This document shows positions 47,054-52,614 of a stretch of DNA of 64,000 nt, piece by piece. Every line of letters begins with the position of its first letter. The first letter of the stretch is position 1. Under the pieces are notes generated by a model, which ran no database searches, was not told the origin of the DNA, and was given only the letters and a program-made list of their open reading frames with translations. Source of the DNA: Gallionella sp. (GTDB taxonomy: Bacteria; Pseudomonadota; Gammaproteobacteria; Burkholderiales; Gallionellaceae); assembly GCA_025350705.1 (NCBI GenBank), contig JANXXH010000051.1, positions 1 through 64,000 of the forward strand. Reading direction: 5' to 3'. The translations under genes were made by a program, and so were the position numbers.

Positions 47054-47929
47054 TTACCGGGCTTTCTTGAGGATAGGTTTACGCGAGAGATTTACTTCCA
47101 GCGCATCCCGGTACGACTGAGTCAGTGATGATTGATTATCCGCATTGCGCTGCAGGGGAGAGTGCCACGCTTTTCCGGCCGAACGTTTGGCGATTCCGCT
47201 CGAGCGATTTGCAACGAATTTTCTGGATTCTTCTATGTTCACGACATTGTCTTCGACATCCTCAACCTGACTGATCTGAAGCTCTCCGTCCAGCCACTTC
47301 AGGATCGGCATGAGCTCCTGCCTTTCCGCATAGGTTTGTGCTTCATCCATTTCAAACACACCCAGACCCTGTTCCGAGGCGTGGATAAAGTTGTCCGAAT
47401 CGCTGATGCTGGTGAGGAAGGGCAGCTTCAGGGAAGCGAGAAAATCTTCCAGCGATCTGCGGGCTGGGGCATCGCTGCGCATCCGATTGGCAACCACTGC
47501 GATATTGGTCTTGGCGACACCGGCTCCGCCGATCAGAAACATCTCTTTGATAAAATCGGCAGTGGCGTGGATGTCGATCGGGGATGGCGTGACCGGAACC
47601 ACGATGTAGTTCGATCTGCGCACCATCTCCTGCAACAACAACCCCTTCACTCCGGAAGGCGCATCAATGACCAGCACCTCGGTGCCGGCAGGAACCCACT
47701 TTTGCAGATTGTGCAGGGTACTGGCACCTTTGGGGGGAGCAGCATTGGCGCCGTGGATATTTATCGAGTGGTTGGGCCGTACCCGCAGCCATTGCAGGCA
47801 AGATCCCTGCGGGTCGTAATCCATGATGGTGGTTCTGAGTTTTTTGCTGGCGTAGTAGCTGGCGAGATTGGTGGTAAGGGTAGACTTCCCTGACCCTCCC
47901 TTGGAATTGATAATCAGTACAGTCAGCAT
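47054..47929 (-). CDS. ParA/MinD-family ATPase, paralog 1
   Basis: Deviant Walker A INSKGGSGKSTLTTNLASYYASKK, DYDPQGSCLQWLRVRP, VLVIDAPSG. Confidence 0.92.
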   Translation of the reverse strand: MLTVLIINSKGGSGKSTLTTNLASYYASKKLRTTIMDYDPQGSCLQWLRVRPNHSINIHGANAAPPKGASTLHNLQKWVPAGTEVLVIDAPSGVKGLLLQEMVRRSNYIVVPVTPSPIDIHATADFIKEMFLIGGAGVAKTNIAVVANRMRSDAPARRSLEDFLASLKLPFLTSISDSDNFIHASEQGLGVFEMDEAQTYAERQELMPILKWLDGELQISQVEDVEDNVVNIEESRKFVANRSSGIAKRSAGKAWHSPLQRNADNQSSLTQSYRDALEVNLSRKPILKKAR

Positions 47930-48121: not shown

Positions 48122-48919
48122 TCAGCTTTGCGGGGTGAGCGGCTTGAATCTCCCCGTAGCGCTGAGGAAGGTGACGTTTTGCGTACCCGTGCGGAATGCC
48201 GCAAGCTTTCTTGATCCTTCCAGGCTCACAGTCTTGTCCTCGATGCGCGACCCGAATCTGTTCGGGAATTGCCCGTTCAGCCATTTCATGATGGGCATGA
48301 GTTCGCGCCTTTCCGCAACGGTGGCGGCTTCGTCCATCTCGAACACACCCAGCCCCTTTGCAGAGGCGTGCAGATAAGTTTCCGAATCGCTGATGCTGGT
48401 GAGGAATGGCAGCTTCAGCGAATTTAGAAAACGCTCCAGCGATCCGTAAACCGGCGAGAAAGAGCTGCGCACGCGGTTGGCGACCACAGCGATCTTCGCC
48501 TTGGAATTGCGCGCGCCGCCGAACAGAAACAGCTCCTTGATAAAATCGGCGGTGGCGTGGATATCGATCGGGGATGGCGCTACGGGAATCACGATAAAGT
48601 TCGCTTTGCGCACCAGCTCCTGCAGCAACAGACCTTTCGCTCCGGCGGGCGCATCAATGATCACGACCTCGCTGTCTGCGGGAACCCATGCATGCATACT
48701 GCGCAGGGGAATGGCACCCTTGGTCGGCGCAGCGTTGGCGCCATGGATCTTCTCCGCATCATCGGGACGTATCCGCAGCCACTGTATGCTCGAGCCCTGC
48801 GGATCGTAATCCATGATCGCAGTCTTGAATTTCTTGCCGGCATAGTAGCTGGCAAGATTGGTCGTTATGGTGGTCTTCCCTGCCCCACCCTTGGAATTAA
48901 TGACAAGTATCGTCAGCAT
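48122..48919 (-). CDS. ParA/MinD-family ATPase, paralog 2
   Basis: MLTILVINSKGGAGKTTITTNLASYYAGKK, DYDPQGSSIQWLRIRP; start at 48919 with an AAGGAGG ribosome-binding site, not 49060. Confidence 0.92.
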   Translation of the reverse strand: MLTILVINSKGGAGKTTITTNLASYYAGKKFKTAIMDYDPQGSSIQWLRIRPDDAEKIHGANAAPTKGAIPLRSMHAWVPADSEVVIIDAPAGAKGLLLQELVRKANFIVIPVAPSPIDIHATADFIKELFLFGGARNSKAKIAVVANRVRSSFSPVYGSLERFLNSLKLPFLTSISDSETYLHASAKGLGVFEMDEAATVAERRELMPIMKWLNGQFPNRFGSRIEDKTVSLEGSRKLAAFRTGTQNVTFLSATGRFKPLTPQS

Positions 48920-49204
48920 TTTGCCTCCTTCCCTCTTGTTTCTTCGCAACCGAAGTGCTGGCCGCCAGTATCTAAATGTAGTCCGCAATCCGGGGGTCGC
49001 CGCCCGGCGAATAAGACAACGCTGCCCGAAAACATCCCGCCTACGAGAATTATGCGGCAACCATAGTGCATTGATAGGCTAGAGTCAAATATTAGTTGGA
49101 ACTTATTGACTGCCATGACTTGCATCAATAACATGGAGCAAAGCTGGGTTCCGGTATTTCTAAGTTCCGGTATTTCTAATATTTTTATTAGATGAGGTGA
49201 CAAA

Positions 49205-49603
49205 ATGGTAACGCAAAAGTCAAAATCAGCTTCAAAGAAAGTTGCTGCAGCCAAAACCAGCAAGACCGCTGCCGGCAAACCAAAAACCACCAAGGCGGCT
49301 GCAACAAAGCCCGCCAAAAAAGTTGCGGTAAAAAAATCTTCTGCTGCAACAACAAAAGCCAAAACACCCGCTGCAAAAAAACCTGCGGCCAAAACAAAAG
49401 CCCCCGCGAAAAAGGCTGCGCCCACCAAGGCCAAGCCCTCAACCACAACCAACAAGGCCACAGCGAAACCAAGTCCCGAAGAACGTTATCGCATGGTGGA
49501 GACGACGGCTTATTTTATCGCCGAGCAACATGGCTTCCAGGGACGCTCGGACGAACATTGGGCGGCTGCCGAACGCGTGATCGCAACCAAGCTCGGCCAA
49601 TAG
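49205..49603 (+). CDS. Histone H1-like PAKKA-rich protein with C-terminal DUF2934 domain
   Basis: Lys/Ala/Thr-rich N-term; PSPEERYRMVETTAYFIAEQHGFQGRSDEHWAAAERVIATKL. Confidence 0.88.
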   Translation: MVTQKSKSASKKVAAAKTSKTAAGKPKTTKAAATKPAKKVAVKKSSAATTKAKTPAAKKPAAKTKAPAKKAAPTKAKPSTTTNKATAKPSPEERYRMVETTAYFIAEQHGFQGRSDEHWAAAERVIATKLGQ

Positions 49604-49652: not shown

Positions 49653-49689
49653 ACAAAAATAAAAAAGGCCCGGCTTAAAGCCGGGCCTT
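49653..49689 (-). terminator. Rho-independent terminator (minus strand)
   Basis: Minus strand AAGGCCCGGCTT-T-AAGCCGGGCCTT followed by TTTTATTTTTG. Confidence 0.85.
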
Positions 49690-49725
49690 ATCGTTATCCC
49701 CGCTGGGGGTAACGCGAGCTGCTGT

Positions 49726-49809
49726 TTACGATTTGCCAGAAAACAAAATCATCAGGCTCACGATAATGAATGGCGAAAAGACAAACGGCAAAATGAAATA
49801 TGTCGACAC
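49726..49809 (-). CDS. 27-aa single-TM small protein downstream of the MgtA-type ATPase
   Basis: GTG start at 49809 preceded by AAAAGGGAGATTTTCT; reads MSTYFILPFVFSPFIIVSLMILFSGKS*, followed 37 nt later by the terminator. Not in the supplied ORF track. Confidence 0.65.
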   Translation of the reverse strand: MSTYFILPFVFSPFIIVSLMILFSGKS

Positions 49810-50007
49810 AGAAAATCTCCCTTTTAATAATTGATTGGATAGGTATACGCCACAGCAGCTTTCTTACGGCCTTGGATACAAACTATTCAGTCTCTAACTC
49901 ATGCCGAAATCGGTCTGGCAATGCGGCAATAAAATGTTGCCATCATTCGAACCAAAAATCAAAAAAGACCTTTTCATAATCGTGGAAATAACCACAGGCA
50001 GATGTTC

Positions 50008-52614
50008 TCAGCGAACCTGAAAACGCCGGTAGAAATAGCGCTTCACCAACTCTACCGCCACCAGATAGCACAGCACCATTACCGGCAGGATCATGAAGAA
50101 CAGGGGCGGCGGAACAACGAAGCCGAGCTGCGCCGCGAACGGCGTGAACGGCAACGCAGCGGCGACCATGACCACCGTCAGCGAAGTGATGGCCAGCGCG
50201 ATGTTCGGCCTGCTCTTGAACGGATTGCCACGGGTGCGGATCACGAATATCACCAGCACCTGCGTGGCGATGGACTCGATGAACCAGCCAGTGTGGAATA
50301 ATTCTTCACCGGCCCCGAAAACTTTCAGCAGAATGAAGAACGTCATGAAGTCAAACACCGAACTGACCGGCCCGACCACCCACATGAAGTTGCGGATGAA
50401 GGTCGTGTCCCAATGCCGGGGATGGGTCAAATATTCCTTGTCCACGTTGTCCATCGGGATCGGCAGTTCGGAGACATCGTAGAGCAGATTGTTGAGCAGT
50501 ATCTGCGACGGCAGCATCGGCAGGAAAGGCAGGAACAATGTCGCACCGGCCATGCTGAACATATTCCCGAAATTCGAACTCGTCCCCATCATGATGTACT
50601 TCAGGATATTGGTGAAGGTGCGCCGCCCTTCCTGCACGCCCGAGTGCAGCACACTCAGATCATGCCGCAACATGATCATGTCCGCCGCCGCCTTGGCCAC
50701 GTCCACGGCACTGTCCACCGAGATACCGACATCTGCCGAGCGCAGCGAAGGCGCGTCGTTGATGCCATCGCCAAGATAACCGACCGTGTGCCCCTGCGCC
50801 TTCAGCGACAGGATGATGCGATTCTTCTGCGCCGGAGTGACGCGACAGAACAGGTTGGCCTCTCTTATTCGAACCGTCAGCGTGGTGTCGTCCATCTTTT
50901 GTATCTCGCTGCCGTTCAACACGCCGCTGACGGCCAAGCCCAGTTGCGCGCACACATAGCGCGTGACCAGCTCGCTGTCGCCGGTGACGATCTTGACGCT
51001 GACTCCGTCCGCCGCCAATGCCTTGAGCGCATGCGCCGCGCTCTCCTTGGGCGGATCGAGGAAGGCGGCGAAGCCGGCGAAGGTCAATTCTGTTTCATCA
51101 TCGACCACCGCATGCGGATGATCCAGCGCCACCGGACGCCACGCGATGCCGAGCACCTTGAATCCTTCGCGGCCAAGGCTGTCGTGCAAGGCCTGTATGG
51201 ATGCCCGCGCCTTGTCGTCCAGCGGCAAAAATCTTTCCAGTTCGCCCACGGCATATTGCGTGGACAGCCGGAGGATATCCTCGGGCGAGCCTTTCACCAC
51301 GAGCAAGCGTTTGTTGCCCAGCCCGAACAATCCTTGCCCGGCCAACGTCAGCCCGGCCAATCCATTATCGACCAGCACTGAAACGCGCCGCCGTTCGAAA
51401 TCGAATGGCACTTCGTCGATCTTGTTCCAGCCGCTTGTGTTTATCTCCTTGTGCTCGAGGATCGCATCATCCAGCGGACTCTTCAGCCCGGTCTCGAAAA
51501 AACTGTTGAGATACGCGAGCTGCAATACCTGCGCGCTGTCGTTGCCGTGCGCGTCGAGATGGCGTTCGAGCTTGATGCGCCCCTCGGTGAGCGTGCCGGT
51601 CTTGTCGGTGCACAACACATCCATGCTGCCCAGATTGTGGATCGCGGCGAGCTGTTTCACGATCACCTGTTTCTTCGCCATGCGCATCGCGCCGCGCGAC
51701 AGCGTCACCGTGACCACCATCGGCAGCAGTTCCGGCGTAAGGCCGACCGCCAGCGCGATCGCGAACAGGAATGATTCGAGGAATGGCCGGTGAAAATATG
51801 CGTTGATCAAAAACACGAACAGCACCAGCAGAAAAGTCAGGCGCATGATCAGCATGCCGAAACTCTGCATGCCCAGCTCGAATGCAGTGGGCGGCGGCTT
51901 CACTGCCAGCGAGTCCACGATGTCGCCCACCGCCGTGTCGGGACCGGTGCAGCACACCAAGGCCTTGGACATGCCGCTGACGACCGACGTGCCCATGAAA
52001 ATGGAATTTTCGGCCTGGCTGAGATCTGCTGCCGGTGCCGGCAATTCGCGCGCATGTTTTTCCACCGGATAAGATTCGCCTGTCAGCAACGACTGGTTGA
52101 TGAAGAAATCCTTCGCCTCGAGCAAACGGCAATCGGCGGGGATCAGATCGCCCGCAGAAAGCAACACCACATCGCCCGGCACCAGCTTCGCGATCGTGAT
52201 CTCCTGCGCACGCCCGTCGCGCAACACCGTGGTGCGCACCGCAACGGTCTTCTTCAATTGCTCTGCGGCGCGACCAGCGCGGTATTCCTGGACGAAATCC
52301 AGCGTCACGCTCATCAGCACGATCGCCCAGATGATCACGAACCCGGTGATCTCGCCGGTCAGCGCGGACACCGCGCTCGCCGCCAGCAACACCATCACCA
52401 GCGGATTTTTGAAGTGGCTCAGATACTGGATCAGCAGCGGACGTTCGCCATGATCGCGCAGTGTGTTGGGGCCGAAGCGCGCGATACGCGCATGCGCTTC
52501 GCGCTGGCTCAACCCGTCCACAGTCACCCCCAATTGCGCTTGCAGGGATACCAGAGACAGATTCCAGAACAGCGCGCCTAGAGGTTTTATCGGGCGTTCC
52601 ATAGCGTCAGTCAA
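50008..52614 (-). CDS. mgtA: Magnesium-translocating P-type ATPase (MgtA/MgtB family)
   Basis: DKTGTLTEGRIKLERHLD, GDGINDAPSLRSADVGISVDSAVDVAKAAADMIML, QYLSHFKNPLVMVLLAASAVSALTGE. Confidence 0.9.
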   Translation of the reverse strand: MTDAMERPIKPLGALFWNLSLVSLQAQLGVTVDGLSQREAHARIARFGPNTLRDHGERPLLIQYLSHFKNPLVMVLLAASAVSALTGEITGFVIIWAIVLMSVTLDFVQEYRAGRAAEQLKKTVAVRTTVLRDGRAQEITIAKLVPGDVVLLSAGDLIPADCRLLEAKDFFINQSLLTGESYPVEKHARELPAPAADLSQAENSIFMGTSVVSGMSKALVCCTGPDTAVGDIVDSLAVKPPPTAFELGMQSFGMLIMRLTFLLVLFVFLINAYFHRPFLESFLFAIALAVGLTPELLPMVVTVTLSRGAMRMAKKQVIVKQLAAIHNLGSMDVLCTDKTGTLTEGRIKLERHLDAHGNDSAQVLQLAYLNSFFETGLKSPLDDAILEHKEINTSGWNKIDEVPFDFERRRVSVLVDNGLAGLTLAGQGLFGLGNKRLLVVKGSPEDILRLSTQYAVGELERFLPLDDKARASIQALHDSLGREGFKVLGIAWRPVALDHPHAVVDDETELTFAGFAAFLDPPKESAAHALKALAADGVSVKIVTGDSELVTRYVCAQLGLAVSGVLNGSEIQKMDDTTLTVRIREANLFCRVTPAQKNRIILSLKAQGHTVGYLGDGINDAPSLRSADVGISVDSAVDVAKAAADMIMLRHDLSVLHSGVQEGRRTFTNILKYIMMGTSSNFGNMFSMAGATLFLPFLPMLPSQILLNNLLYDVSELPIPMDNVDKEYLTHPRHWDTTFIRNFMWVVGPVSSVFDFMTFFILLKVFGAGEELFHTGWFIESIATQVLVIFVIRTRGNPFKSRPNIALAITSLTVVMVAAALPFTPFAAQLGFVVPPPLFFMILPVMVLCYLVAVELVKRYFYRRFQVR

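What the first reader, a model, noticed from the sequence alone, without database searches (positions are those of the whole stretch)
49653..49850. Unannotated 27-aa transmembrane small protein between an Mg2+ P-type ATPase and its terminator
Seen: on the minus strand AAAAGGGAGATTTTCT-GTG starts MSTYFILPFVFSPFIIVSLMILFSGKS*. The stop is followed within 40 nt by a strong hairpin and T-tract on the same strand. The upstream gene is MgtA-like. Established: small bitopic peptides (MgtS, MgtR, KdpF) act on cation P-type ATPases in enterics. Inference: a new small regulator or subunit of this transporter, or an independent small membrane-stress peptide.
Basis: partly seen in the sequence, partly recalled or inferred. 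Interest (0 to 1): 0.6.

Follow-up and report, generated by a model that had tools for sequence, protein, structure and literature searches.

The report
Dispersed membrane peptides tied to haemoglobins
The 27-residue peptide is a real, selected small membrane protein of iron-oxidising Gallionella-type bacteria; it belongs to an undescribed family of dispersed mini-genes whose closest relative is the membrane anchor of a bacterial haemoglobin, so its place beside the magnesium pump looks incidental.

Summary
A GTG ORF at 49726-49809 (-) encodes MSTYFILPFVFSPFIIVSLMILFSGKS, with a Shine-Dalgarno and a strong terminator, 198 nt after an MgtA-type ATPase gene.

It is a genuine protein. About 60 relatives exist in its family (34 of 158 genomes at E<1e-3), more in one sister family. 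dN/dS over independent close pairs is 0.23. A degenerate pattern matched 22 stretches among 85,000 species genomes, all Gallionella/Sideroxydans-type or unspecific "Proteobacteria" MAGs.

The MgtA reading is not supported. Only 5 loci sit behind mgtA. Three syntenic mgtA loci lack the peptide. Sideroxydans ES-1 (identified by size) has four copies and no detected mgtA. The copies are mini-genes with their own ribosome site and usually a terminator, in 15 or more contexts.

The same segment is the N-terminal membrane anchor of group-I truncated haemoglobins (trHbN) in 10 genomes. 30 of 34 peptide genomes carry a trHbN, against 12 of 124 others. At one chemoreceptor locus relatives carry either the solo peptide or the fusion. 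Several of these have a perfect FNR box.

Best reading: membrane-docking element for a microaerobic haemoglobin system. Family and fusion are shown; docking in trans is inferred. The window's own draft genome showed no trHbN.

The parts
49726..49809 (-). 27-aa bitopic membrane peptide, GTG start (MSTYFILPFVFSPFIIVSLMILFSGKS)
   Evidence: family at E 5.9e-13 with profile A2; dN/dS 0.20 against G022:C77 and 0.17 against G083:C9; hydropathy 2.57
49817..49821 (-). Shine-Dalgarno GGGAG, 7 nt before GTG
   Evidence: many family members have GGAG or GGAGGT 5-10 nt before the start
49861..49890 (-). possible promoter CTGAAT-N18-TAAGAA (reading by eye; weak consensus), followed by a shared leader block GCTGCTGTGGCGTA
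   Evidence: block shared with copies at unrelated loci; promoter function inferred, not tested
49665..49689 (-). intrinsic terminator AAGGCCCGGCT-TTA-AGCCGGGCCTT + T tract
   Evidence: stem pairs conserved with compensatory changes over 14 units
50008..52614 (-). MgtA-type Mg2+ P-type ATPase gene upstream; neighbour, probably not a functional partner
   Evidence: TIGR01524, 904.9 bits; linkage test
49205..49603 (+). convergent Lys/Ala-rich histone-H1-like protein with C-terminal DUF2934; neighbour only
   Evidence: same neighbour at G022:C77, G083:C9 and G006:C7

Best explanation
The ORF is one copy of a dispersed, lineage-restricted family of 25-47-residue bitopic membrane peptides, encoded by mini-genes with their own ribosome site and usually a terminator. 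It most likely works as the membrane-docking half of a truncated-haemoglobin (trHbN) system. The hydrophobic segment spans the inner membrane, with the Gly-Lys end probably in the cytoplasm, and puts a globin at the membrane: covalently where the two are fused, and by binding soluble trHbN or its target where they are separate. There the globin would supply O2 to, or remove NO near, the respiratory chain at low oxygen. Shown by sequence: the family, selection, fusion, co-occurrence and FNR boxes on one subgroup. Inferred: topology, binding in trans, O2/NO role. The position behind mgtA is taken to be incidental.
For: Homology: profile E 5.9e-13 for the window copy; the same segment forms residues 1 to about 28 of PF01152 globins in 10 genomes of the family and several of the sister family. 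Co-occurrence: 30/34 peptide genomes have trHbN against 12/124 others (OR 70); 20/24 against 12/124 after removing genomes with a fusion; 13/13 outside the window's genus. It holds in cydA+ and cydA- genomes, while the peptide-cydA association fades once trHbN is known. Locus swap: upstream of a PAS-MCP chemoreceptor, G030, G004, G091, G092 and G093 have the solo peptide and G010 the fusion, with a further solo copy next to a decayed globin. Perfect FNR boxes TTGATN4ATCAA before 8 of 54 copies or fusions, expected 0.03. Selection: dN/dS 0.23 over 15 independent solo pairs. Literature: three trHbN in ES-1, suggested by its authors to belong to a terminal oxidase (PMC3770913).
Against: No experiment shows translation, topology or binding. 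The window's own genome (87% complete) has two peptides and no trHbN match above 23 bits; G082, G098 and G100 are similar. Relatedness inflates the Fisher values: on an rpoB tree of the genus the co-occurring genomes make only about three groups, with trHbN also present without the peptide in G023, G103 and G028. FNR boxes are absent from the window's subgroup. Solo copies are usually not next to the globin gene.
Confidence: 0.45

Rival explanations
1. Small accessory subunit of a respiratory membrane complex (for example a cytochrome bd or cbb3 oxidase), comparable to CydX; the globin fusion delivers O2 to that complex.
For: Peptide presence correlates with cydA (19/34 against 19/124, OR 7); trHbN and FNR links fit low-oxygen respiration; several bacterial oxidases carry single-helix small subunits (general knowledge).
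Against: No copy was recognised inside an oxidase operon (by eye); 15/34 peptide genomes have no detected cydA, and the cydA association is not significant once trHbN is accounted for; no match to any small subunit in PDB, Pfam or NCBIfam.
Confidence: 0.25
2. Membrane-active stress or toxin-like peptide: a type I toxin-like family, multi-copy and hydrophobic.
For: Size, single hydrophobic helix, several dispersed copies per genome, stand-alone units with terminators.
Against: Fusion to a globin domain; strong SD with no marked sequestration (mean unpaired 0.36 against 0.44 in shuffles); no shared antisense gene seen (not searched systematically); no match in 2.9 million viral contigs.
Confidence: 0.12
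3. Dedicated regulator or subunit of the adjacent MgtA ATPase (MgtS/MgtR/KdpF-like).
For: Same strand behind mgtA with no terminator between; the arrangement recurs at G022:C77, G083:C9, G082:C27 and G082:C127; weak genome-level association (14/34 against 25/124, p=0.02).
Against: 5 of about 61 peptide loci and 5 of about 45 mgtA loci; syntenic mgtA without peptide in G025, G098 and G109; G006 keeps a broken peptide copy without mgtA; 20/34 peptide genomes lack detected mgtA. Pfam MgtS-like only at E=6.4 for one member.
Confidence: 0.08
4. Chance ORF or a non-coding small RNA without a translated product.
For: The terminator region is conserved, as for an sRNA.
Against: dN/dS 0.23, conserved start and RBS, in-frame fusion to globins.
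Confidence: 0.03

Closest known systems
N-terminal anchor of Gallionellaceae trHbN (group I truncated haemoglobin, PF01152)
   Same: Homologous segment with the same SPF...FSGK core; in one subgroup the same FNR box and the same locus
   Different: The window copy has no globin domain and stops after GKS; its own draft genome shows no trHbN
MgtS / MgtR (enterobacterial small proteins acting on MgtA)
   Same: About 30 aa, bitopic, here near an MgtA-type ATPase gene
   Different: No sequence match (PF22865 best E=6.4 for one member); most copies far from, or without, mgtA; lineage-restricted with many paralogues
KdpF
   Same: Single-helix peptide encoded next to a cation P-type ATPase
   Different: KdpF is an operon subunit of KdpFABC; here an MgtA-type pump, a 198-nt gap and no obligatory linkage
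CydX-type oxidase small subunits
   Same: Short single helix, link to low-oxygen physiology
   Different: No copy recognised in an oxidase operon; no profile match
Type I toxins (Ldr, Ibs, TisB, ZorO)
   Same: Small hydrophobic, multi-copy, stand-alone units
   Different: SD not sequestered, no antisense partner seen, globin fusions

Membership tests
MgtS-like regulators of MgtA | Sequence match to the MgtS-like family (PF22865) | tested here: not met
   1 of 48 members at E=6.4; window peptide none
MgtS-like regulators of MgtA | Genes occur with mgtA | tested here: not met
   14/34 genomes; 5 of about 61 loci adjacent; syntenic mgtA loci without peptide
MgtS-like regulators of MgtA | Binds MgtA, protects it from FtsH, induced by low Mg2+ | not testable with these tools
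   needs experiments; MgtS binding is described for E. coli in PMC10925321
Truncated-haemoglobin anchor family (defined here) | Homology to the N-terminal TM segment of trHbN fusions | tested here: met
   window copy E 5.9e-13 with profile A2, which contains the window copy itself and two fused anchors, so not an independent test; fused anchors also found from the single window peptide at E 0.001-0.04 (G019:C95, G010:C55)
Truncated-haemoglobin anchor family (defined here) | trHbN present in the same genome | tested here: inconclusive
   30/34 peptide genomes yes; window genome no match above 23 bits but 87% complete
Truncated-haemoglobin anchor family (defined here) | Recruits globin to the membrane | not testable with these tools
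   inference from fusion
Type I toxin | SD sequestered in the full-length mRNA | tested here: not met
   SD unpaired 0.36 against 0.44 in shuffles, no strong sequestration
Type I toxin | Toxic on overexpression, cis-encoded antisense RNA | not testable with these tools
   one antisense promoter-like site at 49803-49831 (+) in the window, near chance level; conservation not tested
Cytochrome oxidase small subunit | Encoded in the oxidase operon, or matching a solved subunit | tested here: not met

The most novel reading that the evidence does not exclude
A two-part membrane haemoglobin system in which a scattered set of mini-genes, each with its own control, makes interchangeable one-helix docks that bring a soluble truncated haemoglobin to different membrane partners; the gene fusions are the covalent version of the same arrangement.
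Probability: 0.3. Interest if true: 0.78.

Novelty: new variant of a known kind. Interest (0 to 1): 0.55.

Why it matters
Iron oxidisers such as Sideroxydans ES-1 carry unusually many globins, and why is an open question in print (PMC3770913). A conserved, unannotated peptide family that is homologous to the globins' membrane anchor gives that question a direct test: does trHbN go to the membrane through these peptides? It also shows a case where the neighbouring gene (MgtA) suggests one partner, while fusion and co-occurrence suggest another.

Tried and rejected
Family look-ups in Pfam, NCBIfam and PDB with 48 members: nothing credible. Rfam around the locus: only sub-threshold matches to the terminator hairpin. 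The search for related loci with the alignment failed for lack of a conserved stretch; replaced by a tuned degenerate DNA pattern, which recovers about a third of known members. Phylum-wide profile search: one partial match at E=0.005 in an unrelated frame, judged chance. Phage origin: no match in viral contigs. Automatic clustering of neighbours was dominated by spurious reverse-frame ORFs and was replaced by nearest-ORF lists. narG as control family: no positive association (0/34). ES-1 transcriptome paper: no mention of globins in its main text. A sigma-54 reading of the conserved upstream block was considered and dropped because the element spacing is wrong. Structure prediction was not run: a single helix would not discriminate between the explanations.

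Full report
Observation. The minus strand reads AAAAGGGAGATTTTCT-GTG and then 27 codons, MSTYFILPFVFSPFIIVSLMILFSGKS, stop at 49726. An 11-pair terminator begins 36 nt after the stop. Upstream, 50008-52614 is an MgtA-type ATPase (TIGR01524, 904.9 bits, cut-off 610.75). The gap is 198 nt with no terminator-like site on that strand. Among 157 small ORFs of 20-50 codons with an SD-like site in the window, this is the most hydrophobic.

The peptide is real. A search of 61 relatives gave homologues in the same genus, several with more than one copy per genome. A profile of 12 found matches at E<=0.05 in 41 of 158 genomes of the taxonomic family, in 8 of 15 genera and with up to four copies in a genome; 34 of the 41 match at E<1e-3. 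A broader profile found a second family of the same order, with a solo form (MHDALNSYGFYVLFTPFVVLALMILFSGNSSK) and globin fusions, and nothing convincing in a sample of the phylum. Invariant or nearly so over 48 members are the proline of the SPF motif, a valine three residues before it, and the glycine of FSGK. Over 15 independent solo pairs pS is 0.436 and pN 0.136, dN/dS 0.23; the window copy gives 0.20 and 0.17 against two syntenic relatives. A degenerate DNA pattern (46.8 bits) scanned over 85,000 species genomes hit 22 stretches. None hit in viral contigs.

Mini-genes. Most solo copies have GGAG or GGAGGT 5-10 nt before GTG or ATG, and a majority have an intrinsic terminator within about 80 nt after the stop, often of the form GGCCTGGC-TTCG-GCCAGGCC-TTTTT. 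Over 14 aligned units the terminator stem keeps pairing with changes on both sides at 6 of 8 pairs. Upstream blocks are shared between copies at unrelated loci (GATGACACTATTTC..TTGCCACA and CTGCTGTGGYGTACGCAAGTTCC). At many loci the upstream gene runs the other way, so these copies must have their own promoter. Contexts number at least 15 by my count from the nearest-ORF lists; the gene names used here beyond the ATPase, globin, PAS-MCP, peroxiredoxin and TonB receptor are by eye.

Not an MgtA accessory. In 158 genomes there are about 45 mgtA matches in 39 genomes; five peptide loci lie directly behind one (window, G022:C77, G083:C9, G082:C27, G082:C127). G025, G098 and G109 have mgtA followed by the H1-like and/or ParA genes of the window but no peptide there. 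G006:C7 keeps a copy with a broken reading frame beside the H1-like gene without mgtA. 20 of 34 peptide genomes have no detected mgtA, including G147, whose single 3,003,656-bp contig fits Sideroxydans lithotrophicus ES-1 (identity inferred from size) and which has four copies. The genome-level association with mgtA is weak (OR 2.8, p 0.02).

Link to truncated haemoglobin. In 10 genomes of the family the same segment is residues 1 to about 28 of a PF01152 globin with a short linker; some carry two globin domains in tandem. Soluble trHbN genes without the segment occur in other genomes. 30 of 34 peptide genomes have a trHbN against 12 of 124 others; without fusion genomes 20 of 24 against 12 of 124; within the window's genus 17 of 21 against 3 of 53-55; in other genera 13 of 13 against 9 of 71. 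cydA is associated too (19/34 against 19/124), but not significantly once trHbN is known, while the trHbN association holds in both cydA strata; narG is not positively associated. At one locus upstream of a PAS-MCP chemoreceptor five genomes have the solo peptide and one the fusion; that sixth genome also has a solo copy followed by a decayed globin reading frame, so the membrane part can persist without its globin. Six of these solo copies and two fusions have a perfect FNR box 85-108 nt upstream (8 of 54; expected 0.03). The authors of the ES-1 genome paper counted three trHbN there, none in Gallionella ES-2, and suggested a terminal-oxidase role; the genome that fits ES-2 by size (G076) has neither peptide nor trHbN.

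Limits. Relatedness matters: on an rpoB tree of 56 genomes of the genus the peptide genomes fall in about three groups (G025 to G090; G004+G030; G010), each with trHbN, with G098 the exception, while trHbN also occurs alone in two further lineages. So the co-occurrence rests on few independent events within the genus and the Fisher p-values are too small. The window genome itself has two peptides and no trHbN match above 23 bits; it is 87% complete. The window's subgroup has no FNR box. The profile used for the window copy's E-value contained that copy and two fused anchors, so it shows one family but is not an independent test; the single window peptide alone reaches fused anchors at E 0.001-0.04. 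Topology (Gly-Lys end inside) is inferred from charge.

Mechanism. Committed reading: the peptide is the membrane-docking element of a microaerobic trHbN system (0.45 for the link with docking as its mode). Steps shown: coding-type selection, mini-gene structure, fusion, co-occurrence, FNR boxes on one subgroup. Steps inferred: membrane topology, binding in trans, O2 supply or NO removal near the respiratory chain. The main rival is an accessory subunit of a respiratory complex (0.25), which would share most of this evidence.

Noticed in passing
L143 (G278:C9), L116:4010-4840 (-), L117:5033-5854 (+): Membrane-anchored proteins with two truncated-globin domains in tandem behind the same N-terminal helix.
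   Followed up: partly
L054 (G010:C55), about 81001-81084 (-) of the contig and the 300 nt after it: Intact solo peptide directly followed by a decayed globin reading frame, with the intact fusion gene as next neighbour.
   Followed up: partly
G006:C7:30469-30525 (-), L012/L055: Copy of the peptide whose reading frame is broken, between HU-like and H1-like genes, without mgtA.
   Followed up: partly
upstream 60-130 nt of G022:C37, G094:C213, G178:a, G090:C187, window 49940-49900 and others: Shared block GATGACACTATTTC..TTGCCACA before copies at unrelated loci; possible regulator site, regulator unknown.
   Followed up: no
window 47054-47929 and 48122-49060 (-): Two consecutive ParA-like ATPase genes; a ParA-like gene also follows at several other mgtA-peptide loci. 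No ParB looked for.
   Followed up: no
window 49205-49603 (+): Lys/Ala-rich histone-H1-like protein carrying a C-terminal DUF2934 domain (PF11154, E 4.3e-12).
   Followed up: no
loci of G074:C5/G094:C213/G100:C61, G166:C8/G169:C60/G178:b/G114:C230, G000:C39/G098:C148/G109:C147: Three different peptide contexts lie beside genes that by eye look cobalamin-related (adenosyltransferase, CbiB-like, TonB receptor of BtuB type); may be coincidence.
   Followed up: no
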